DNA of 64,000 bases, taken from contig NZ_CP095757.1 of the NCBI RefSeq assembly GCF_023093535.1, positions 2,852,001 to 2,916,000 on the forward strand, given 5' to 3'. Below, in pieces: positions 920 to 32,842 of the stretch (position 1 is the first letter of the stretch; every line of letters starts with the position of its first letter). The notes below the pieces were generated by a model. It worked only from the letters and a program-made list of their open reading frames with translations. It did not search any database and was not told the DNA's origin. Origin of the DNA: Halovivax limisalsi. Its GTDB lineage: Archaea; Halobacteriota; Halobacteria; Halobacteriales; Natrialbaceae. Position numbers and translations under genes: made by a program.

Positions 920-3900
920 TCACTCTTGGGGCTCGCCTGCCGCAGGTAGCGTGACCGTGAACGTCGTCCCCTCGCCGGGGTCGGAGTCGACCCGGATCTT
1001 GCCGTCGTGGCGCTCGACGATGCGCTGACAGAGCGCCAGCCCGATCCCCATGCCCGCGTGTTCGTCGCGGCCGTGTAAGCGGTTGAACACCTCGAAAATG
1101 TCGTCCTGGTAGTCCGGATCGATCCCGATCCCCCGATCGCTGACCGTCAGTTGCCACCGGTCGCCGTCGCGCTCGGCTCCGACGTGGATCCGCGGGGGCT
1201 CGTCGCCGCTGTATTCGATCGCGTTGTCGAGTAAGTTCTGGAAGAGTTGGCGAAGTTGGCTCGCATCACCCTCGACGCGGGGTAGCGACTCGCTCGTGAT
1301 CTCGGCATCGCTCTCTTCGATCTGTAGCCGGAGATCGTCCAGCACGTCGTCGAGGGTGGCCTGGAGATCGACGGGTTCGAACGGCTCACCCTTCGTTTCG
1401 ACGCGGGAGTACTCAAGCAGCGCGTCGATCATCTCGCGCATGCGCTCGGCGCCGTCGACGGCAAACTCGACGAACTCCCGGCCGTCCGCGTCGAGTTCGT
1501 CGCCGTACCGGCGTTCGAGCAACTGGAGGTAGCTCGACACCATCCGTAGCGGCTCCTGCAGGTCGTGACTGGCCGCGTACGCGAACTGTTCGAGGCGTTC
1601 GTTGGACGCCTCGAGTCTGCGCTGGTACTCCTTGCGCTCGGTGATGTCGACGAGGGTGACGACCGCGCGGGTCACCTCGCCGTCCGCGTTCCGAACGGGC
1701 GTGCCGTGGTTCAAAACGATCCGGCGTTCCCCGTCGAAGCCCTCGATTTCGATCTCGTCCGGATCGGTCACCTCTTCGCCCCGGAGCGCACGCGCCAGCG
1801 GCCACTCGTGGGGCTCGACGGGCTCTCCCGTGTCCGCCCACCAGGCGTCGTACGCCTCGTACTCGGCGACGGACTCGGATTCGGCGACCTCGCCGCCCCA
1901 GATCGCCTCGGCGGCCTCGTTCCACTCGACGATCTCGCCGTCGGCTTCGGCGACGAAGACGGCGACCGGGAGCACGTCGATGAGCGCCCGGAGCTGGTTC
2001 CGGCTCTCCTGGAGCGCCTGTTCGCGTTCCTTGCGCTCGGTGACGTCGCGGTCCGAGACGATGATGGATACGACCTCGCCGTCCTCGTCCGTGACCGGCC
2101 GGAAGTAGCCGCTCAGGGTGTACCGGTCGCCGCCCGGTCGGATGAGATCCGCCTCGAAATCGACGTACTCGCCGTCGGCCGCTCGCTCGGTCCACTCCCT
2201 CACGTCCGACTGGACGCCCGCCTGGCCGCCCCACCAGGGCGTCTCCCAGAACGGTTCGCCGGTCACGTCCGCGAGGGCGGCGTCCACGTACTCCATGGCC
2301 GTCCCGTTGATGTCCAGAACCGTCCCGTCTGGATCGAGCAGGCCGACGAGGATGTTCGGATCCTCGAAGACGGCCTCGTACCGGCGTTCCTTCCGCCGCA
2401 GCTCCCGCTCGCGCTCCCGTCGGTCGGATATATCCCTGACGACGCCGACGCGCCGGTCGGGCTCGTCGGGGCTCGCCAGCAGTGCGAACGTCGCCTCCGA
2501 GGGGAGTCGTTCGCCGTCGGCCCGCCGTAGCTCCGCCTCGACCGTCGACCCGTTCGAACCGCCGTGGCGCATTTCGGCCTCGGTCACCTGCGCTCGCTCG
2601 GCGACCGCCTGGTCGACGACCAGCGAAACGTGGGCCCCGATCAGGTCGTCGCGATCGTAGCCAGTCATCTCGACGTAGGCGTCGTTGACCATCGTGAACC
2701 GGCCCTCGTCGTCGACCACGTAGACGCCGTCGTTGACGGTTTCGACGACCGTCTCGTAGCGCTGGAGTTCGCGTTCGCGCTCCTTGCGCTCGGTGATGTC
2801 GACCAGGTACCCGAGATAATTCGTGATCTCGCCCGAGTCGTCCCGGACGATCTTGGTGGTGTCTTTCACCCACCTGACCTCGCCGCCATTGGTCCGCACG
2901 CGATACGGCTCGTGGCTGAAGCGCTCGGTCGTCCCGTCGCTGTTGGCTTCGACCTCCCGGGCGATGCGGTCCACCTCCTCCTCGAAGAGCAGGTCGGTGT
3001 ACGGAACCGTCCCCGACTCGAGTTCCGCGGGCGCGTAGCCGAACACGTCCTCGACATTTGGGGAGACGTACTCGACCGGCCACCCCGCCTCGTCGTCGGG
3101 CTCCCACCTGAAGACGACCGCGGGGCCGTCCGCGAACATGTCCCGCTCCTCGGCCAGCCGCCGCTCGGCGCGCTTGCGATCGGTGATGTCCGAGATGATG
3201 CCCTCGATCTCCACCAGCTCGCCGTCCTCGAAGATGCCACGGCCGCGATCGCTGACCCACCGCCGTTCGCCGGTCGCGGTCTCGATGCGGTAGGTCACCG
3301 CGAACGTCCCGTCCTCGCCCGCCTCCCGCTGGACGGCCTCCCAGACCGCCTCCCGGTCGGCCTGCACCATCACGTCCGCGCCCCAGTTCACGTCGCCGCG
3401 TTCCAGCGCCTCGGCGGCGTATCCCGTTACGTCTTCGCACGCGTCGCTCACGAACGCCACGGGCCAGTCGCGGTCGTTCCGACACCGATAGACCATCCCC
3501 GGCACGTTGTCGATCAGCGACGAGAGCCGCCGTTCGCGCTCGCGGAGTTCCCGTTCCAGTTCGCTGTGGTCGGCGATCGGCCCGGCGCGCTCGCGGTCGC
3601 GCACGTCCCGAACCACGCCGACGGTTCCTCGGAGGCTGCCGCGTTCGACCAGCAGGCTCATCCGGAGTTCGCACGGGACGGTCCCGCCGTCGGCCGTCCG
3701 GATCGACAGCTCGAACGTCTCGACGCGCGGCCGACCCGCCTCGAGGCGCGCGGCGATCTCCCGTTCGATTCGCTCGACGTCGTCTTCGGCGACGAGCCGG
3801 GAGACGTGCTCGCCGAGCAGGGCGTCGCGGGGATAGCCGGTCGCCTCGACGATCGCGTCGTTGACCGCGACGAATCGGCCCGCGGCGTCGAGCTGGTAGA

Positions 3901-4006
3901 TGCCGTCCTCGACGGCGTTGACCAGCGTGCGATACTGCCGGCACGCCTCGGTATCGTCAGCCGTCCCCCAGAACTCCGTCTCTGCGGTCCCCCCACCGTC
4001 GCTCAT
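920..4006 (-). CDS. Multi-PAS sensor histidine kinase
   Basis: Signal-transducing kinase of 1028 residues with no obvious membrane span, so probably cytoplasmic. Six PAS-type sensory domains occupy roughly residues 20-790, most ending in the PAC-like motif DITERKER/DISDRRER. Then come a HisKA dimerisation domain with phospho-acceptor His at about residue 814 (ASHDLQEPLR) and a HATPase domain with N-box NLLDNAIEYS, G1 DRGIGI and G2 GMGIGLAL. No receiver domain is fused and no response regulator is adjacent, so the partner is unknown. I start at the ATG at 4006 rather than the in-frame ATG at 4129: it opens MSDGGGTAETE, and a TATA-like box lies 29 bases upstream, fitting leaderless transcription. 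The signal sensed cannot be told from the sequence. Confidence 0.93.
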   Translation of the reverse strand: MSDGGGTAETEFWGTADDTEACRQYRTLVNAVEDGIYQLDAAGRFVAVNDAIVEATGYPRDALLGEHVSRLVAEDDVERIEREIAARLEAGRPRVETFELSIRTADGGTVPCELRMSLLVERGSLRGTVGVVRDVRDRERAGPIADHSELERELRERERRLSSLIDNVPGMVYRCRNDRDWPVAFVSDACEDVTGYAAEALERGDVNWGADVMVQADREAVWEAVQREAGEDGTFAVTYRIETATGERRWVSDRGRGIFEDGELVEIEGIISDITDRKRAERRLAEERDMFADGPAVVFRWEPDDEAGWPVEYVSPNVEDVFGYAPAELESGTVPYTDLLFEEEVDRIAREVEANSDGTTERFSHEPYRVRTNGGEVRWVKDTTKIVRDDSGEITNYLGYLVDITERKERERELQRYETVVETVNDGVYVVDDEGRFTMVNDAYVEMTGYDRDDLIGAHVSLVVDQAVAERAQVTEAEMRHGGSNGSTVEAELRRADGERLPSEATFALLASPDEPDRRVGVVRDISDRRERERELRRKERRYEAVFEDPNILVGLLDPDGTVLDINGTAMEYVDAALADVTGEPFWETPWWGGQAGVQSDVREWTERAADGEYVDFEADLIRPGGDRYTLSGYFRPVTDEDGEVVSIIVSDRDVTERKEREQALQESRNQLRALIDVLPVAVFVAEADGEIVEWNEAAEAIWGGEVAESESVAEYEAYDAWWADTGEPVEPHEWPLARALRGEEVTDPDEIEIEGFDGERRIVLNHGTPVRNADGEVTRAVVTLVDITERKEYQRRLEASNERLEQFAYAASHDLQEPLRMVSSYLQLLERRYGDELDADGREFVEFAVDGAERMREMIDALLEYSRVETKGEPFEPVDLQATLDDVLDDLRLQIEESDAEITSESLPRVEGDASQLRQLFQNLLDNAIEYSGDEPPRIHVGAERDGDRWQLTVSDRGIGIDPDYQDDIFEVFNRLHGRDEHAGMGIGLALCQRIVERHDGKIRVDSDPGEGTTFTVTLPAAGEPQE

Positions 4007-4030
4007 ATCGGAGGGGGTCGACAGCAAGTC

Positions 4031-4039
4031 GGATAAATG
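4031..4039 (-). promoter_or_regulatory. TATA-like box of the multi-PAS kinase
   Basis: CATTTATCC on the minus strand, centred 29 bases before the ATG at 4006. This supports that start and a leaderless mRNA. Confidence 0.6.
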
Positions 4040-4142
4040 CCGTGCACTGGTCGCGGGAAACCTACCGCCGAGAACGGAGTCGCGCCGGGCCGCGATGGCG
4101 GCGCTCCCTGAGTCAAAAAGGCCGCACACAGCTCCAACTACG

Positions 4143-4325
4143 TCAGATATCGACGGGATCTATGGAGCCAGCAGGTCCGGTCCGAGCGGGCTCGTCGTCA
4201 CCGGCCGCGTGCGCGATCGGCGTCTCGCCGTTTCGCTCGACGATCTCCGGGAGCCGATCGCGAACGTGCGGGACGCGGCTCACACGCTCTTCGGCGAGCG
4301 AAAATCGGTTCGACCGGCACTCCAT
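4143..4325 (-). CDS. Small protein of unknown function (60 aa)
   Basis: I do not recognise this family. The frame from ATG 4325 encodes 60 residues beginning MECRSNRFSLAEERV and ending GSIDPVDI, with the mixed acidic composition of haloarchaeal proteins. A TATA-like CCCTTACCG (about 4349-4357, minus strand) sits 27-28 bases before this ATG, the leaderless spacing seen at other genes here, and this is the main support. The frame stays open upstream to 4421, but that stretch looks non-coding. It lies between the kinase and the HalOD1 gene, reading the same way. It may still be a chance frame. Confidence 0.45.
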   Translation of the reverse strand: MECRSNRFSLAEERVSRVPHVRDRLPEIVERNGETPIAHAAGDDEPARTGPAGSIDPVDI

Positions 4326-4471
4326 TCGGACGGCGCCGTCCGTAGCCGACGGTAAGGGTCCACTCGCGGGCCGGCACAGGTGGGGCAACCGGATGGAGCG
4401 TTGGAGAGGCCCGTCCAGCAATATGTCGGCGAAGTAGCGCGCCGGGCCGGGGTCGACCGGCCGGCCGAACG

Positions 4472-4789
4472 CTAGTTCGCGTCCGGGCGTGGATCGATCG
4501 CGATCTCGTCGACCGAGACGGTTACCTCGCAGCTCGCGTACTCGAACGAGAGGGAGAAGTCGGTCTGGCAGGCCGCCGCGTGGTCGACCAGCTGGTCGAG
4601 GGCCTCCGGATCGATCGCGTGGTACAGCGGCGGGAGCGGTGACCCCGCTTCGGTCGGGACGGCCGGACGGCCGGTGACCGACGAGACCGCCTCGAGGACG
4701 GCCTCGCTGCTCGGTTGCGACGTCGATCGGTCGAGGGTGATCGGTCCATCCTGAGTGGCACAGCAGTCGTTCGGGGGTGCGGCTGACAT
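4472..4789 (-). CDS. HalOD1 output-domain protein
   Basis: Small (105 aa) single-domain protein. Residues about 25-100 match the haloarchaeal HalOD1 output domain as I know it: VLEAVSSVTGRPAVP, then LPPLYHAIDPEALDQL and a C-terminal strand pair with VTVSVDEIAIDP. HalOD1 domains are found alone or attached to haloarchaeal response regulators; the molecular activity is unknown. ATG 4789 (MSAAPPNDCCA) is the natural start; the frame happens to stay open through the gene upstream, which uses another frame. It lies downstream of, and on the same strand as, an HTH_10 regulator, so a regulatory pair is plausible. Confidence 0.8.
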   Translation of the reverse strand: MSAAPPNDCCATQDGPITLDRSTSQPSSEAVLEAVSSVTGRPAVPTEAGSPLPPLYHAIDPEALDQLVDHAAACQTDFSLSFEYASCEVTVSVDEIAIDPRPDAN

Positions 4790-24654: not shown

Positions 24655-24803
24655 GAACACCGCAAGGGACCGCACGGACCTAACTCCGTCGCCGGCACGG
24701 GTGGTCGACCGAACAGTCCGCATCCGTGAGGAGAGACGACTGCGGTGGGGCGGCAGCCGGACCGGAGCGATACCCCTTTTGGGGCCCGTCCGGCACTTGG
24801 AGT

Positions 24804-27008
24804 ATGGACCAGAAGCGGGAGCTTTCGAGCGTCGACCTCGCGGCCGTCGTCGCGGAGCTGTCGGCCTACGACGGCGCGAAGGTCGACAAGGTCTACCTCT
24901 ACGGCGACGACCTGCTCAGGCTGAAGATGCGCGACTTCGATCGGGGTCGCGTCGAACTGTTCGTCGAGGTGGGCGAGACCAAGCGCGTCCACACGGTCGC
25001 GCCCGAGCGCGTTCCGGACGCACCCGGCCGCCCGCCCCACTTCGCGAAGATGCTCCGGAGTCGGCTCTCCGGCGCCGATTTCGTCGAGGTCTCGCAGTAC
25101 GAGTTCGACCGGATCCTCGAGTTCGTCTTCGACCGCGACGACGAGACCACGCGGATCATCGTCGAGCTCTTCGGCGAGGGCAACGTCGCGGTCACGGACG
25201 GCGAGTACGAGGTCGTCGACTCGCTGGAGACCGTCCGGCTGAAGTCCCGGACCGTCGCACCGGGTTCGCGCTACGAATTTCCGGAATCGCGCGTCGACCC
25301 GCTGACCGTCTCGCGCGAGACGTTCGACCGCCAGATGGCCGACTCCGACACCGACGTCGTCCGGACGCTCGCGACCCAGCTCAACTTCGGCGGGCTCTAC
25401 GCCGAGGAGATCTGCACGCGCGCCGGCGTCGAGAAGACGCTCGACATCGCCGAGGCGGGCGACGACGAGTACGAACGCCTCTACGGCGCCGTCGAGCGAC
25501 TGGCGATCGACGTCAGGACCGGCGCCTTCGACCCGCGCATCTACGTCGAACGCGATTCGGACGGGGCCGAATCGGCGGGGGCCGCTGACGCGGGCGAGTC
25601 GAGCGACGACGGCGAGACCGACGGTACAGCGGGCGATTCCGGCGGACGAGTCGTCGACGTCACGCCCTTCCCGCTCGAGGAGCACCAGGCCGCGGGGCTC
25701 GAACCCGAGGGTCGCGACTCGTTCCTCGACGCGCTCGACGAGTACTTTCACCGACTCGAACGTGACGAGCAGGAGGACGAGCCGGGGAGCCAGCGCCCGG
25801 ACTTCGAGGCCGAGATCGAGAAACAACGGCGCATCATCGACCAGCAGGAGGGCGCCATCGAGGAGTTCGAGCGCGAGGCCGAGGCCGAGCGCGAGCGCGC
25901 GGAGCTGCTCTACGCCAACTACGGACTCGTCGACGAGATCCTCTCGACCGTTCGACAGGCCCGCGAGTCGGGGACGCCGTGGGACGAGATCGACGCCCGC
26001 TTTTCCGAGGGCGCCGACCAGGGCATCGACGCGGCCGCGGCCGTCGTCGACGTCGACGGCGCGAACGGTCGCGTCACCGTCCAGGTCGAGGGCGAACGGA
26101 TCCCGCTCGAGGCCGACGCGGGGGTCGAGAAGAACGCCGATCGCCTCTACACGGAGGCCAAACGGATCGAGGAAAAGAAAGCCGGCGCCGAAGCGGCGAT
26201 CGAGGATACCCGCGAGGCGCTCGCCGATCTGAAAGCCCGCCGCGACGCCTGGGAGGCCGGAGAGGGGCCAGACGACGGCGCGGACGAGGAAATGAACGAC
26301 GAGGACCGCGAGATCGACTGGTTGGCCCGCTCCTCGATCCCCATCCGCGAGAACGAACCCTGGTACGGTCGCTTCCGCTGGGTCCACACCAGCGACGACT
26401 TCCTCGTCATCGGCGGGCGCAACGCCGACCAGAACGAGGAACTGGTGAACAAGTACCTCGAACCGGGCGATCGCGTCTTCCACACGCAGGCCCACGGCGG
26501 CCCGGTCACCGTCCTCAAGGCGACCGATCCGGGCGAGTCCTCGCGGCCCGACATCGAATTTCCCGACACGAGCATCGAGCAGGCCGCGCAGTTCGCCGTC
26601 TCCTACGCGTCGGTCTGGAAGGACGGTCGCTACGCCGGCGACGTCTACGCCGTCGACGCCGACCAGGTGACGAAGACGCCCGAGAGCGGTGAGTACCTCG
26701 AGAAGGGCGGCTTCGCGATCCGCGGCGATCGCACCTACCACCGCGATACGCCCGTCGGCGTCGCGATCGGCGTTCAGTGCGAGCCCTGGACCCGGGTCAT
26801 CGGCGGCCCGCCGGCGGCCATCGCCGACCGATCGGTGACGACGATCGCGGTCGAACCCGGCCGCTACGCCCAGGGTGACGTCGCGAAGCGGATCTATCGC
26901 GAACTCCGCGAGCGCTTCGCCGACGAGTCCTTCGTTCGGAAGGTTGCCAGCCCGGACCGGATTCAGCACTTCCTGCCCCCGGGCGGGAGCCGAATCAAAG
27001 ACGACTGA
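24804..27008 (+). CDS. rqcH: Ribosome quality-control factor RqcH (NEMF/Rqc2/Tae2 family)
   Basis: Binds stalled large ribosomal subunits carrying peptidyl-tRNA and, in bacteria, recruits tRNA-Ala to tag the nascent chain. The 734-residue protein has an NFACT-N domain (about 1-210) with RPPHFAKMLRSRLSG and the Asp-Arg pair in EFDRILEFVFD, a helix-hairpin-helix part, a long coiled coil (about 330-500; EKQRRIIDQQEGAIEEFERE), and a C-terminal NFACT-R domain with PWYGRFRWVHTSDDFLVIGG and EQAAQFAVSYASVWKDG. A linker rich in Asp/Glu/Gly is the haloarchaeal variation. Start ATG 24804 (MDQKRELSSVDL) is family-typical. Pelota follows 93 bases downstream. Confidence 0.94.
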   Translation: MDQKRELSSVDLAAVVAELSAYDGAKVDKVYLYGDDLLRLKMRDFDRGRVELFVEVGETKRVHTVAPERVPDAPGRPPHFAKMLRSRLSGADFVEVSQYEFDRILEFVFDRDDETTRIIVELFGEGNVAVTDGEYEVVDSLETVRLKSRTVAPGSRYEFPESRVDPLTVSRETFDRQMADSDTDVVRTLATQLNFGGLYAEEICTRAGVEKTLDIAEAGDDEYERLYGAVERLAIDVRTGAFDPRIYVERDSDGAESAGAADAGESSDDGETDGTAGDSGGRVVDVTPFPLEEHQAAGLEPEGRDSFLDALDEYFHRLERDEQEDEPGSQRPDFEAEIEKQRRIIDQQEGAIEEFEREAEAERERAELLYANYGLVDEILSTVRQARESGTPWDEIDARFSEGADQGIDAAAAVVDVDGANGRVTVQVEGERIPLEADAGVEKNADRLYTEAKRIEEKKAGAEAAIEDTREALADLKARRDAWEAGEGPDDGADEEMNDEDREIDWLARSSIPIRENEPWYGRFRWVHTSDDFLVIGGRNADQNEELVNKYLEPGDRVFHTQAHGGPVTVLKATDPGESSRPDIEFPDTSIEQAAQFAVSYASVWKDGRYAGDVYAVDADQVTKTPESGEYLEKGGFAIRGDRTYHRDTPVGVAIGVQCEPWTRVIGGPPAAIADRSVTTIAVEPGRYAQGDVAKRIYRELRERFADESFVRKVASPDRIQHFLPPGGSRIKDD

Positions 27009-27101
27009 CCGCCGGTCTCGAACCGCAGCCCACTCCGGACGCGCTCGCCCTGACGCCCTCACATCGGTGCCCACTTACCCCTCCCACGGAAACACTCGCC
27101 C

Positions 27102-28169
27102 ATGCAGGTCAGAGACCGGGAGCCGCTCGACGGCGGTCGCGAGCGCCTGACGGTGGTCCCCGAGAGCGTCGACGACCTCTGGCACCTCCAGTACGTCCTC
27201 GAACCCGGCGACCGGGTGGCCGGCGACACCACCCGGCGCATCCAGCGCAACGACGACAAAATGCGCGACACGGGCGGCGAGCGCGAGCACATGTGGGTCG
27301 CCCTGGCGGTCGACGAGGTGGAGTTCCACCGATTCGCGAACCGGCTGCGCGTGTCCGGGGAGATCGTCGCCTGTTCCCGGGAGGATCAACTCGGCTTTCA
27401 CCACACGCTCAACGTGGAGGAGCGAGACGAACTCTCGATCGAGAAGTACTGGAAACCGGATCAGGAACGCCGCCTCGAGGAAGCCGAAGAGGCGACCGAA
27501 AACCCGGACGTCGCCATCGCCACCGTCGAGGAGGGTCGAGCCCACGTCCACAGCGTCGCCCAGTACGGCACCGAGGAGCGGGCAACGGTTACGGGCTCGA
27601 CCGGGAAGAACGAGGACGCGCAGGATCGTACCGCGCTCTTTTCCGAGTTGACCGACGTCCTCCGTCGCCTCGACGTCGACGCGATCATCCTCGCCGGGCC
27701 CGGCTTCACGAAGCAGGACGCCTACAAGTACCTCGAGGACGAGGCGCCCGATGTCGCCGACCAGATCACGATGGTCGACACGGCGAGCGTCGGCGATCGC
27801 GGCGTCCACGAAGTCCTCAAACGCGGCGCCGTCGCGGACGTCCAGGAAGAGACCCGCATCGAGGCCGAGGCCGAGGCGATCGACGAGCTGACTCGCCGGA
27901 TCGCCGAGGGGGCGAAGGCCGCCTACGGCCCGGAAGAAGTCGAGCAAGCCGCCGAGTACGGCGCCATCGAGGAACTGTTGATCGTCGACGATCGGCTCCG
28001 GACGGAGCGCGGACCCGACGGCGACTGGGCGGTCAATGTCGACGACCTCGTCCGTACGACCGAACAGAAAGGCGGCGAAGTGACGGTCTTTTCGAGCGAG
28101 TTCCCGCCGGGCCAACAGCTCTCGAATCTCGGGGGGATCGCGGCCCTGTTGCGATATCGCGTGCAGTGA
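27102..28169 (+). CDS. pelA: mRNA surveillance and ribosome-rescue factor pelota (Dom34)
   Basis: eRF1-like factor that enters the empty A site of stalled ribosomes with an EF1A-type GTPase and helps ABCE1 split them. The 355-residue protein shows the three domains: the N-terminal Sm-like domain ([21 protein letters not shown], then [21 protein letters not shown]), a central domain ([19 protein letters not shown]) and a C-terminal domain ([42 protein letters not shown]). It lacks the GGQ motif of eRF1, as expected. It lies just after rqcH, so a stalled-ribosome pathway appears clustered. Confidence 0.96.
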
Positions 28170-29369: not shown

Positions 29370-29650
29370 ACGTTGCCCTCCACGGGGTTCGTGGAAAAAC
29401 GTTGCGACGAGCCCATCAGCGGACCGTCGATAGCGGACTCGCACCGTGACGGGTGGTGACAGCCAACAGTGCGACTGCTGCTCTCGACCGGTCGTCCGCC
29501 GCGTCGGACGGACGCCTCACTCGCCGCCCCACGTCCGATCGACGGTCCGTCGGCCGTCTGTCACCGGTGGCTCCGACCGGCATGTGAACCGTCCGCTCGA
29601 GACGGGCGACGATCGACCGTCCGCTCGTTACGGCCGTCGGTCAGCGCCCG

Positions 29651-29977
29651 TCACTCGACGTCGACGCCCTCCAGACCGTCGCCATCGGGCGTCAGTTCCT
29701 CAGTCGGTTTCTGGGCGATGGCGGTCCCCAGCGCGCCGATCCCGCCGTTCTCGTCGCCGATCCAGCTCACGCTGCCGTCGGGTTCGAGAAAGCCGAAGCG
29801 GCCGCCGTCGTCGTCGATGACGAGGACGCCCGCGAAGAAGCCGTTCTCGCCGGCCGCGACGGTCGCCTCGTAGCCCTGGGCCTCGAGCTGGTCGCGATAG
29901 CGCTCGAGTCTGGTCTCTAATTCCGCGCGATCCTGCATCGTCAAGCGTTCGAAGTAGGTGTCGAGGTTCGGTGTCAT
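29651..29977 (-). CDS. Small protein of unknown function in the DUF2589/HhH module (108 aa)
   Basis: I do not recognise it. The N-terminal third is helical and charged (LDTYFERLTMQDRAELETRLERYRDQLEAQ); the middle looks like a small beta domain (GFFAGVLVIDDDGGRFGFLEPDGSVSWIGD); the tail is acidic. It starts 47 bases after the helix-hairpin-helix gene on the same strand and may be the fourth gene of that unit. No membrane segment or signal peptide. Confidence 0.72.
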   Translation of the reverse strand: MTPNLDTYFERLTMQDRAELETRLERYRDQLEAQGYEATVAAGENGFFAGVLVIDDDGGRFGFLEPDGSVSWIGDENGGIGALGTAIAQKPTEELTPDGDGLEGVDVE

Positions 29978-30024
29978 CTATCGTGAATCGTGGGTCGTCT
30001 CATCGTTGGCGGTCCACGGTCGTC

Positions 30025-30912
30025 TCATCGGTCATCGCCCGAGGTGTCGGTCTCGTCGGTGTCGTTGGACTCTCGCGTCGGTTCATCCGTCGGTCGGGTC
30101 CCGTCGGTCGATTCGCCCGCGGATTCCAGTTCGGCGAGTAAGCTGTCCGCCTCGTCCAGCCACTCGGCCGCCCGCTCGGTCGAGACGCCGCGCGACCCGG
30201 TGCTGACCAGCTCCGCGAGTTCGTCCGGCGAGCGCTCGACGAGGTCCGAGAGCGTCTCCACGCCGTGTTCCCGTAGTCTGCTGCCGAACGTCGGGCCGAT
30301 GTCGTCGACGAACTCGACGGGCTGCGCCCCGCCGGAGAGGACGGTGATCATGCCGCGGGCTTGTTCGATCCAGTCGCGGGTCCGATCCGCCGAGACGACC
30401 GCCCCCTCCGCGCTCACGACCTCCGCGAGTTGCTCGGGCGAGTGAGCCACGAGGTCGGCGATCGACTCGATACCCGCGGCTTCGAGATCAGCCGAGAACT
30501 GCGGTCCGATCCCCCGGACCGCGTCGACCGACTGGCTTTCGGGCAGCCCGTCACCTCCGCCGGGTCGACCGGGGAACGGCCCGTCGACGATCTCCTCGTA
30601 CTCGAGGTCCGGAAAGTCGTCGGCGTCGACCAGGTCGAACAGTTCGACCGAGAGAGACAGGCCGGTTTCGTCATCCGAGTCGGACTCGGTAACGTAGAGT
30701 TCGACCCCGTCTTCGGTCGGTTCGGCCTCGAGGCCAACGTCCAGCGAGACGGAGACGTCGGAGGCGTGGTAGACGGGGACGGAGCCGTCCGGCGGAATCG
30801 CGCCCCGTTCGACGAGTTCCAGATACCGTGCCCGACCGTGCTCGACCGCCTGGACCTCCGCTTCGGAGAACGACTCGTAGAGAGCCTCCAGGAAGGTTCG
30901 GAGTTCAGTCAT
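30025..30912 (-). CDS. Tandem helix-hairpin-helix protein of the DUF2589 module
   Basis: Protein of 295 residues. The N-terminal half has a helix (LRTFLEALYESFSEAEVQAVEHG) and a beta segment PVYHASDVSVSLDVGLEA, which echoes the IPLLL..VP..x.I..F strand region of the two DUF2589-like neighbours. The C-terminal half has two helix-hairpin-helix repeats: VDAVRGIGPQFSADLEAAGIESIADLVAHS and VEFVDDIGPTFGSRLREHGVETLSDLVERS, each with I-G-P-x-F/L at the hairpin, usual in non-specific DNA or protein binding. An acidic tail follows. ATG 30912 overlaps the end of the gene upstream by eight bases, so translation is coupled. No function is known to me. Confidence 0.8.
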   Translation of the reverse strand: MTELRTFLEALYESFSEAEVQAVEHGRARYLELVERGAIPPDGSVPVYHASDVSVSLDVGLEAEPTEDGVELYVTESDSDDETGLSLSVELFDLVDADDFPDLEYEEIVDGPFPGRPGGGDGLPESQSVDAVRGIGPQFSADLEAAGIESIADLVAHSPEQLAEVVSAEGAVVSADRTRDWIEQARGMITVLSGGAQPVEFVDDIGPTFGSRLREHGVETLSDLVERSPDELAELVSTGSRGVSTERAAEWLDEADSLLAELESAGESTDGTRPTDEPTRESNDTDETDTSGDDR

Positions 30913-31642
30913 CGTCTCGTTCCTCTCCGTCTCCGTCCTCGGTCGGCGGTTCAACCATCTCGTCGGACGGGTTCGGCGTCGCCTCGAACGCGCGGTCCGT
31001 CCGTCCGAGCCCTCGCGACGGAGCCGTCGGTCGACCGCCGTCGGATTCGGTTCGCTGCTCCGCGTTGAGACGTTCGGTCCGTTCCTCGTCGATCCGGTCG
31101 TTCGTCATCGTCGACGCGACGCGTTCGAGGCGGTCCATCCCCGCCGACTGGTTCGTCACCTCCGCGACCATCCGGACGTTCAGGTCGTAGCTCGATCGGC
31201 TGGTCCGGTCGACGGCCGTCTCACGTGTCGATGGCGTGACTTTGAGACGGGTGGGGTTGAGTGGGCGGATCGGGTACCGTGGCTTGCTGGCGGTCGCGAG
31301 CGACGCCTGGTCGGCTTCGTCGTCATCCGGCTCCTCGACGGTCGTGATCTTCGCGGAAAACTCCTCTTCGATCTCGTGGATGACGAGGTTCGGGACGGAC
31401 AGAAAGAGCAGGAGGGGGATTTCCAGCTCCCTGGCGACCCGACGCGACTCGCCGGTCTCTGGATCCGGTTCGGTCGTCGTGTACCCGAAGCTCACCGTGA
31501 CGAGATTGCCGTCCTCGTCGTAGCCGTACTCCCGGAGAAGCTCGACCGTCTCGGTCTGGGCGGCGACGTTCGCGTCGATCGCCGCGATCAGCGGCCCCGA
31601 GAACAGCGCCGACAGCGGGAGATCCTCGAGTTGTTTCGTCAC
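30905..31642 (-). CDS. DUF2589-like protein B
   Basis: Protein of 245 residues, a paralogue of its upstream neighbour. The first 105 residues match it and the bacterial DUF2589 pattern as I remember it: LEDLPLSALFSGPLIAAIDANVAAQ, a YDEDGNLVTVSFGYT turn and ELEIPLLLFLSVPNLVIHEIEEEFSAKI. After residue 105 a hydrophilic tail of 140 residues follows (including ATASKPRYPIRPLNPTRLKV and YDLNVRMVAEVTNQSAGMDRL). No signal peptide or membrane span. It lies 22 bases after gene A and overlaps the HhH gene. The family has no assigned function that I know of. Confidence 0.78.
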   Translation of the reverse strand: MTKQLEDLPLSALFSGPLIAAIDANVAAQTETVELLREYGYDEDGNLVTVSFGYTTTEPDPETGESRRVARELEIPLLLFLSVPNLVIHEIEEEFSAKITTVEEPDDDEADQASLATASKPRYPIRPLNPTRLKVTPSTRETAVDRTSRSSYDLNVRMVAEVTNQSAGMDRLERVASTMTNDRIDEERTERLNAEQRTESDGGRPTAPSRGLGRTDRAFEATPNPSDEMVEPPTEDGDGEERDDD

Positions 31643-31664
31643 CAGTTCTCACATCCGAAACGCA

Positions 31665-32270
31665 TCATTCGCCGCCGCCCGACGCCTCTTCCTCCGACGT
31701 TTCGGTGATCGTCTGCTCGAGCACGTCCAGTAATCGAGTTACACCTGTCGGGGCCTCGATCGAGCCCGCCTCGATGTGGACCGACTGATCGTACTTGCGT
31801 TCGATCTTCTGCTGGCGCTTCTCGGTCCGCTGGTAGCTGCCGCCGACGTTGAACCCGATGATGCCGCCGAGCAGGCCGCCGACGCTCCCGCCACCGCCGC
31901 CCTCGGTCTCGACTCGCTTCGCGTGAACTGAGTTGAGCGAGACGTTGAAGTCGACGGTGACGTTGTTCACTTCGAAGTACGGCACGTGGAGCAACAGCAA
32001 CAGCGGAATCTTCATCTGGAATTCCTGGGTCTCGACCTCCCCCTCCGCGTTCGTCGCATCCTTCCGGTAGTGGAAGTTGACGTACACCGGCTCCCGCTGG
32101 GCGCCGAAGGTATCGAACCCCTCGCTCTCTTTGAACGCGACATCCTGAATGAACTGCGCGGCCGTCTCGGAGGCCTCCGCGTTCGCCTCGACCGCCGCGT
32201 TCAGTGGCGCGCCGAGGATCTTGCTGTACGGAATATTCCCGAGTTCCTTCGGGAAGTCTGGTCTTGGCAT
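31665..32270 (-). CDS. DUF2589-like protein A
   Basis: First gene of the module, 201 residues. Conserved block: LGNIPYSKILGAPLNAAVEANAEAS, then a strand region PVYVNFHYRKD and FQMKIPLLLLLHVPYFEVNNVTVDFNVSL, which aligns with protein B. A Gly-rich stretch (EGGGGGSVGGLLGGIIGFNVGGSYQ) follows and could be a membrane-contacting or flexible segment, then a charged helix (RTEKRQQKIERKYDQ) and an acidic end. ATG 32270 is about 38 bases downstream of a strong TATA-like box in an A+T-rich island. Role unknown. Confidence 0.8.
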   Translation of the reverse strand: MPRPDFPKELGNIPYSKILGAPLNAAVEANAEASETAAQFIQDVAFKESEGFDTFGAQREPVYVNFHYRKDATNAEGEVETQEFQMKIPLLLLLHVPYFEVNNVTVDFNVSLNSVHAKRVETEGGGGGSVGGLLGGIIGFNVGGSYQRTEKRQQKIERKYDQSVHIEAGSIEAPTGVTRLLDVLEQTITETSEEEASGGGE

Positions 32271-32302
32271 ACTGTCCCAAGTTGGTATGTGTACCCATCA
32301 CC

Positions 32303-32313
32303 GATAAATATAC
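32303..32313 (-). promoter_or_regulatory. TATA-like box of the DUF2589 module
   Basis: GTATATTTATC on the minus strand, about 38 bases before ATG 32270, which implies a short leader of about ten bases. It is one of the most canonical boxes in the window. Confidence 0.6.
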
Positions 32314-32842
32314 TCGTCCAGTTATTACTTTTAATAAAATTGGTTAGAATCGCACACATACATAGTTACCTAGGATGGAAACCGATGAAAAGAATTATTA
32401 GTAGATATTGATTCGTAACTTTCGATTTGTTCGAGTGGATGCCGCCGGAATCGGCCGCGCGGATTCGAGAACGGTACCGAAACCTCAACTGACGACCGAT
32501 GTCGTCAATCGGCGCCACCGGTCGCGGCCCGCGCTTCTACGACCGCCCACGAGACCCCGCCTGCGACCACCCCCCCGATTCCGGGGGCGGCCGGGACTCT
32601 CTGGGGCGGCTGGGAAACATCGTGGGCGAGCGGCGACTTTACACCGGACGAGCGGCGACCGGACTCGGCGACGTACGAGACGGTCGAGGGGACGTCGGGA
32701 CCGCTCAATGGGAACTACAACGGTTCGTTCGGCGGGCGCCGTGGGGGGATCGTCGCAGCTTCGCCGGCGCGGTTACCCGCACTTATTCACTTTCACCGCG
32801 CTGACCCAACCCTCTTTGTTGCTGGCGACCCAGAAGACCTCG
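32314..32842. other. Gene-free stretch: A+T-rich island, then a frame without a start
   Basis: 32300-32420 is strikingly A+T-rich for this chromosome and holds no frame. GTATGTGT (32285-32292) and ACACATAC (32354-32361) form an inverted repeat around its promoter-proximal end. From about 32420 one + strand frame is open into lhr and reads like haloarchaeal protein in places (GTLWGGWETSWASGDFTPDE; NGNYNGSFGG), but contains no ATG or GTG start before it enters lhr. It may be a decayed gene. Confidence 0.5.

What the first reader, a model, noticed from the sequence alone, without database searches (positions are those of the whole stretch)
29651..32313. Uncharacterised module: two DUF2589-like proteins, tandem HhH protein and a small partner
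Genes A and B are clear paralogues: both have L-x2-I/L-P-x-S-x4-GxPLxAAxxAN near the start and a shared IPLLLxLxVP strand later. The third gene pairs a related strand segment (PVYHASDVSVSLDVGL) with two helix-hairpin-helix repeats, and a 108-aa gene follows. Overlap and spacing of 22, -8 and 47 bases show one operon with a strong promoter. I know no function for the set. A hetero-oligomer of A and B, linked by the HhH protein to DNA or another protein, is a testable idea, possibly at the membrane given the Gly-rich stretch of A.
Basis: partly seen in the sequence, partly recalled or inferred. Interest (0 to 1): 0.7.

Follow-up and report, generated by a model that had tools for sequence, protein, structure and literature searches.

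The report
Portable four-gene DUF2589 operon in haloarchaea
This is a compact set of four genes that salt-loving archaea gain or lose as one block; it looks like an offshoot of a three-gene set found across many bacteria and archaea that nobody has characterised, and it probably makes a multi-protein assembly of unknown function.

Summary
Four minus-strand genes, A (31665-32270), B (30905-31642), C (30025-30912) and D (29651-29977), have the stated spacings. A and B are members of DUF2589 (PF11655) above its cut-off; C has two HhH repeats; D matches no family. The 'would refute' condition (no conserved neighbourhood) is contradicted: all eight other haloarchaeal genomes examined around DUF2589 carry A-B-C-D contiguously. 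In 243 haloarchaeal genomes C and D occur in the same nine. In a congener and in other families the flanking genes (MBL hydrolase, Lhr helicase) are adjacent without the operon, so it behaves as a portable ~3.3 kb unit. New: DUF2589 belongs to a strict A-C''-E operon in 72 of 80 bacterial and archaeal loci, and C' of Archaeoglobaceae is a C'' homologue. The haloarchaeal set is probably a derived version: DUF2589 duplicated, C'' reduced to an N-terminal domain (weak evidence) with optional HhH, E missing, D added. HhH is absent from the genus-g33 C proteins, which weakens a DNA-linking role. Best reading: a cytosolic hetero-oligomer in which A carries a long beta-hairpin whose uncharged or amphipathic tip B lacks. 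A pore or tube is possible but unproven.

The parts
31665..32270 (-). Gene A, 201 aa, DUF2589; long N-terminal helix, beta-strands, C-terminal helix
   Evidence: PF11655 67.7 bits; AF2 model mean pLDDT 64
31830..31901 (-). Gly-rich uncharged stretch of A (residues 124-147, GGGGGSVGGLLGGIIGFNVGGSYQ), at the position of the hairpin tip of bacterial relatives
   Evidence: pLDDT below 50 there in the window model
30905..31642 (-). Gene B, 245 aa (GTG start), second DUF2589; charged/Pro-containing segment instead of the tip
   Evidence: PF11655 57.9 bits
30025..30912 (-). Gene C, 295 aa: N-terminal domain (1-~110) + two HhH units + acidic tail
30583..30912 (-). Conserved N-terminal domain of C; weak colinear match to the N terminus of the widespread C'' family
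   Evidence: hhalign 35.6%, E=3.9e-4
30127..30537 (-). Tandem helix-hairpin-helix region of C; not part of the conserved core (absent in genus g33)
   Evidence: PF14520
29651..29977 (-). Gene D, 108 aa, haloarchaea-specific small acidic protein
   Evidence: no family match; strong hits in 9 of 243 genomes, all with C
32303..32312 (-). TATA-like box upstream of A (minus strand TATATTTATC)
   Evidence: read directly; conserved in three other loci of the genus
32322..32337 (.). Palindrome TTATTA-N4-TAATAA, candidate regulator site; similar position in the same-genus loci (one or two mismatches in L042, L044)
   Evidence: not tested statistically
29413..32735 (.). Approximate limits of the stretch present here and absent in congener G002, where MBL and Lhr are neighbours; no target-site duplication seen

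Best explanation
A-B-C-D is one co-transferred operon encoding a cytosolic hetero-oligomeric assembly. It is a haloarchaeal derivative of a widespread three-gene module (A = DUF2589, C'', E). A and B are division-of-labour paralogues: both have a long helix with spaced small residues and a beta-sheet, but only A carries an elongated beta-hairpin with an uncharged or amphipathic tip. The N-terminal domain of C joins them through the same kind of helix plus 'VP-x-strand' element; its HhH domains are an optional add-on for binding some other partner. D is a haloarchaea-specific accessory that may take the place of E. SHOWN: gene content, family, co-occurrence, conserved order, portability, dispensable HhH, and homology of the archaeoglobal C' to C''. 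INFERRED: physical assembly, the hairpin shape (low-confidence models), descent of C from C'', and the role of D.
For: DUF2589 in 7/61 relatives, always as A then B; A-B-C-D contiguous in 8/8 other haloarchaeal loci read; C and D found in the same 9 of 243 genomes at high score, with B adjacent in the loci re-checked. A-C''-E contiguous and same-strand in 72/80 genome-contig loci from many phyla. C' ~ C'' 96.9%, E=1.8e-10; C N-term ~ C'' 35.6%, colinear from the first Met; C'' ~ DUF2589 56.7%. Empty site in G002 and MBL-Lhr adjacency in five other loci. Tip present in A and replaced in B in haloarchaea, Archaeoglobaceae, Vibrio plasmids and Nocardioides. Bacterial A model: strands 88-125 and 132-168 form one long hairpin.
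Against: No direct evidence of physical interaction. Both models are of modest confidence (mean pLDDT 64 and 67, tips below 50) and no significant PDB fold match was found. The C-to-C'' link is statistically weak alone, and E has no counterpart. The 80 loci came from patterns biased to the A-C''-E type of A, so 72/80 may overstate its universality; plasmid loci show another arrangement.
Confidence: 0.5

Rival explanations
1. A forms an oligomeric beta-barrel pore or tube: the long hairpins of many A copies line up, the tip inserts in the cell's own or another membrane, and B, C and partners cap or regulate it.
For: Foldseek of the bacterial A model lists many beta-stem pores (iota toxin Ib prob 0.97, anthrax PA, CDTb, lysenin, aerolysin), phage tail proteins and FliF RBM3 rings. 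The tip shows two alternating polar/non-polar strands around a GWGP-like turn, joint p=0.014. Some bacterial operons carry peptidoglycan-binding/VanY/muramidase genes.
Against: No E-value better than 0.04 in PDB and TM-scores of at most ~0.27, so the matches reflect long hairpins in general. No signal peptide or TM segment evident. Window A itself shows no significant alternation at the tip. Cell-wall genes occur in only a minority of loci.
Confidence: 0.2
2. One reading: an A-B complex tethered to DNA by the HhH protein C.
For: Two HhH units above the Pfam cut-off, resembling HhH regions of DNA-binding proteins.
Against: HhH absent or unalignable in C of four species of genus g33 that keep B, D and the N-terminal domain of C; C is strongly acidic (72 D+E against 17 K+R); C'' and C' have no HhH match.
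Confidence: 0.1
3. Remnant or structural part of a virus, tailocin or contractile injection system.
For: Long-hairpin similarity to phage tail proteins; one BFVD entry is a clear DUF2589 relative (A0A516MP19, E=4e-8); an unverified 4-kb 'Bacteriophage sp.' record carries it.
Against: IMG/VR scan found no relative; no convincing PHROGs family for A, B or D; no sheath, baseplate or capsid families among the 25 listed in a Pfam sampling of bacterial neighbours; window flanks are housekeeping genes.
Confidence: 0.08
4. A condition-dependent metabolic or stress accessory complex without membrane action.
For: AF0414-AF0417 (DUF2589-related) are up-regulated on lactate in Archaeoglobus fulgidus (PMC3949148); patchy, module-like distribution.
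Against: No enzyme fold or catalytic signature found in A-D; no consistent metabolic neighbour.
Confidence: 0.12

Closest known systems
DUF2589 family (PF11655)
   Same: A and B score above the curated cut-off with the characteristic motifs
   Different: Two divergent copies, one without the hairpin tip; haloarchaeal partners C and D
A-C''-E operon of bacteria and many archaea (found here, unnamed)
   Same: A is homologous; C lies downstream with a similar N-terminal layout
   Different: E absent, DUF2589 duplicated, C reduced to the N-terminal domain and often fused to HhH, D added
AF0414-AF0417 of Archaeoglobus fulgidus (region up-regulated on lactate; L050 taken as this locus from genome size and position, not confirmed)
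   Same: DUF2589 pair followed by a C''-type gene
   Different: C' lacks HhH, no D; in the tree the duplication does not group with the haloarchaeal one
Beta-stem pore-forming proteins (aerolysin, lysenin, iota Ib/PA)
   Same: Predicted long two-stranded hairpin with an amphipathic tip in bacterial A
   Different: No significant sequence or fold match, no secretion signal, much smaller protein

Membership tests
DUF2589 (PF11655) | Score above gathering cut-off (23 bits) | tested here: met
   A 67.7, B 57.9 bits over nearly the whole profile
A-C''-E module | DUF2589 gene first | tested here: met
   hA ~ bacA 100%, E=1e-39
A-C''-E module | C'' homologue in the same operon | tested here: inconclusive
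   35.6%, E=3.9e-4 on its own; colinear from the start codon
A-C''-E module | E homologue | tested here: not met
   D ~ bacE 0.3%; no E-like gene in the operon
HhH proteins | HHH_5 above cut-off in C | tested here: met
   43.4 bits against 27; but absent in C of relatives of genus g33
Beta-stem pore-forming proteins | Significant fold match | tested here: not met
   best PDB E=0.04; window model no relevant match
Beta-stem pore-forming proteins | Pre-stem amphipathic hairpin | tested here: inconclusive
   family profile p=0.014; window A alone not significant
Beta-stem pore-forming proteins | Membrane permeabilisation | not testable with these tools
   needs experiment
Phage or injection-system structural genes | Homologues in viral collections or structural neighbours | tested here: not met
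   one BFVD relative only
Known anti-phage defence systems | PADLOC model match | tested here: not met

The most novel reading that the evidence does not exclude
DUF2589 with its C''/E (or B/C/D) partners is an unrecognised, cytosolically made, multi-subunit beta-barrel ring, pore or tube spread across bacteria and archaea, in which paralogous tip-bearing and tipless subunits build one assembly.
Probability: 0.15. Interest if true: 0.85.

Novelty: new variant of a known kind. Interest (0 to 1): 0.5.

Why it matters
A domain of unknown function with essentially no literature becomes a defined, testable module: fixed partners (C'', E) over many phyla, none with a Pfam match, and a halophile version that can be deleted as one block. 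If the long-hairpin model is right, it adds a new class of prokaryotic ring- or pore-like assembly; if not, it still gives a conserved complex to solve.

Tried and rejected
PDB sequence searches for A (profile) and C gave nothing convincing. Foldseek with the window A model gave only noise. D compared with all ORFs of the bacterial loci, including the small Vibrio plasmid protein: no credible homologue. D versus E: none. Viral contigs: no relatives. A per-sequence amphipathicity test was only weakly positive (26% of sequences at p<=0.05, related sequences), so I rely on the profile test and call it suggestive. The cell-wall-enzyme link in bacteria was counted by Pfam sampling: 4 PG_binding_1, 3 VanY, 1 muramidase among 51 hand-picked neighbours and nearby genes; not tested against background. 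The sigma-70 promoter scan is not applicable to archaea.

Full report
OBSERVATION. A and B belong to PF11655, well over its cut-off, and are paralogues (BLASTP E=3e-11; hhalign of the two haloarchaeal families 99%). C has two HhH units. D has no significant Pfam, NCBIfam, PHROGs or PADLOC match.

CONSERVATION IN HALOARCHAEA. DUF2589 is patchy: 7 of 61 relatives, always as an A-B pair. Reading the loci of eight other genomes (L042-L049) shows A-B-C-D contiguous in each, with different flanks outside the genus. Searches of 243 genomes of the order with D and with the N-terminal domain of C give the same nine genomes at high score; tblastn on the fetched loci shows B and C next to D, including in two genomes (G546, G557) not seen before. 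One further genome has a marginal D-like hit (34% identity, E=8e-4).

PORTABLE UNIT. In congener G002, which lacks DUF2589, the MBL-fold gene and the Lhr helicase are divergent neighbours, and the window aligns to it up to ~29412 and again from 32786 by BLAST, by eye from ~32735. Lhr and MBL are also adjacent in five loci of other genera or families (L168, L173, L174, L177, L178). The simplest reading is that a ~3.3 kb segment holding the operon and its promoter was gained here; loss in G002 is possible. No target-site duplication was seen. The operon has a TATA-like box and, just upstream of it, a palindrome TTATTA-N4-TAATAA at a similar position in four species of the genus, with one or two mismatches in two of them.

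WIDER FAMILY. A profile search of GTDB contigs with diverse archaeal A proteins returned 80 loci from many bacterial phyla plus Methanoperedens, Methanothrix, Bathyarchaeia and others. In 72 of 80 the DUF2589 gene is followed on the same strand by a ~230-aa gene (C'') and a ~190-aa helical gene (E); median distances 71 and 8 nt. Representatives of C'' and E have no Pfam hit above cut-off. Most exceptions lie at contig ends or are variants such as Nocardioides L130 (A-C''-second DUF2589, then a short gene and a PG-binding protein). Archaeoglobaceae have A-B-C', and C' is a C'' homologue (96.9%, E=1.8e-10). The N-terminal domain of haloarchaeal C matches C'' weakly but colinearly from the start codon (35.6%, E=3.9e-4), and C'' shows a weak match to DUF2589's own helix-plus-strand segment (56.7%, E=1e-4). 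I conclude that the window operon is probably a derived form of this module, and mark the C link as inference. The tree puts haloarchaeal A and B each in one group; archaeoglobal B does not group with haloarchaeal B, so the duplications may be independent, but long branches make this uncertain.

WHICH PART OF C MATTERS. Aligning nine C proteins shows that the N-terminal ~110 residues are conserved, while the HhH region is absent from L048 and L049; in all four g33 species C matches only over residues 1-~104. C is highly acidic. HhH is thus optional, which argues against DNA linkage as the core function.

STRUCTURE. AF2 of window A (72 sequences, mean pLDDT 64) gives a long N-terminal helix (15-45), strands and a C-terminal helix, with 114-157 unresolved; no useful PDB match. 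AF2 of a bacterial A (L082, 80 sequences, pLDDT 67) gives a two-stranded hairpin of ~37 residues per strand (88-125, 132-168), with parts around the tip below 50. PDB matches are non-significant (E>=0.04) but many are long-hairpin proteins: binary-toxin and aerolysin-type pores, phage tail proteins, FliF rings. The only significant BFVD hit is a DUF2589 relative. The family profile alternates polar/non-polar at 116-126 and 131-141 around an AGWGPF turn (joint p=0.014). Window A has instead a 24-residue uncharged Gly-rich stretch there, and B a charged, proline-containing linker; a tip-bearing A with a tipless partner recurs in Archaeoglobaceae, Vibrio plasmids and Nocardioides, although haloarchaeal A tips of g33 are more charged. 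This is shape-level evidence for an elongated-hairpin oligomer, not homology to pore-formers.

CONTEXT AND LITERATURE. Some bacterial operons carry peptidoglycan-binding/VanY proteins, HExxH-containing proteins or, in Chryseobacterium, an upstream patatin; most do not. Viral contigs hold no relatives. The library holds one paper that mentions DUF2589: A. fulgidus AF0414-AF0417 are up-regulated on lactate (PMC3949148).

VERDICT. A real, conserved, portable operon and a new variant of a broadly distributed uncharacterised module. A hetero-oligomer is the best mechanism (0.5); pore or tube is the exciting but unproven version (0.15-0.2).

Noticed in passing
L062-L141 (e.g. L082:4992-6942): Strict A(DUF2589)-C''-E operon in 72 of 80 bacterial/archaeal loci; C'' and E have no Pfam family, so two new family models are warranted.
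   Followed up: partly
L129:7140-7991, L125:7030-7941, L109:7020-7583, L130:7356-8093, L106:3796-4731: PG_binding_1 and/or VanY/M15-like proteins next to, sometimes overlapping, the A-C''-E operon in unrelated phyla.
   Followed up: partly
L104, L105:7181-7732, L108, L120:7043-7594: Family of ~183 aa without Pfam match but with an HExxH motif (AEHEQDHV in L105) directly after E.
   Followed up: no
L131, L134, L135, L137, L138, L140 around 3550-4627: Patatin-like phospholipase gene directly upstream of the module in Chryseobacterium (a similar one upstream in cyanobacterial L132).
   Followed up: no
L143:4302-6174, L146:4323-6108, L144:5107-7187: Second arrangement on Vibrio and deltaproteobacterial plasmids: tipless DUF2589-like gene, A, then a conserved ~91-aa protein; A itself is unannotated on the Vibrio plasmids.
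   Followed up: partly
window 32322-32337: Palindrome TTATTA-N4-TAATAA just upstream of the TATA box of A, conserved in the genus: candidate regulator site.
   Followed up: partly
L163 and L182 (G002); window 29413-32735: Empty site: MBL and Lhr genes adjacent in a congener, ~3.3 kb operon inserted in the window.
   Followed up: yes
L046:4471-5994, L047:8450-10066: C of two MAGs carries a ~150-aa extra segment between the N-terminal domain and the HhH region.
   Followed up: no
window 24726-28169: NFACT (24726-27008) and Pelota/eRF1-like (27102-28169) genes, both tied to ribosome rescue, lie next to each other.
   Followed up: no
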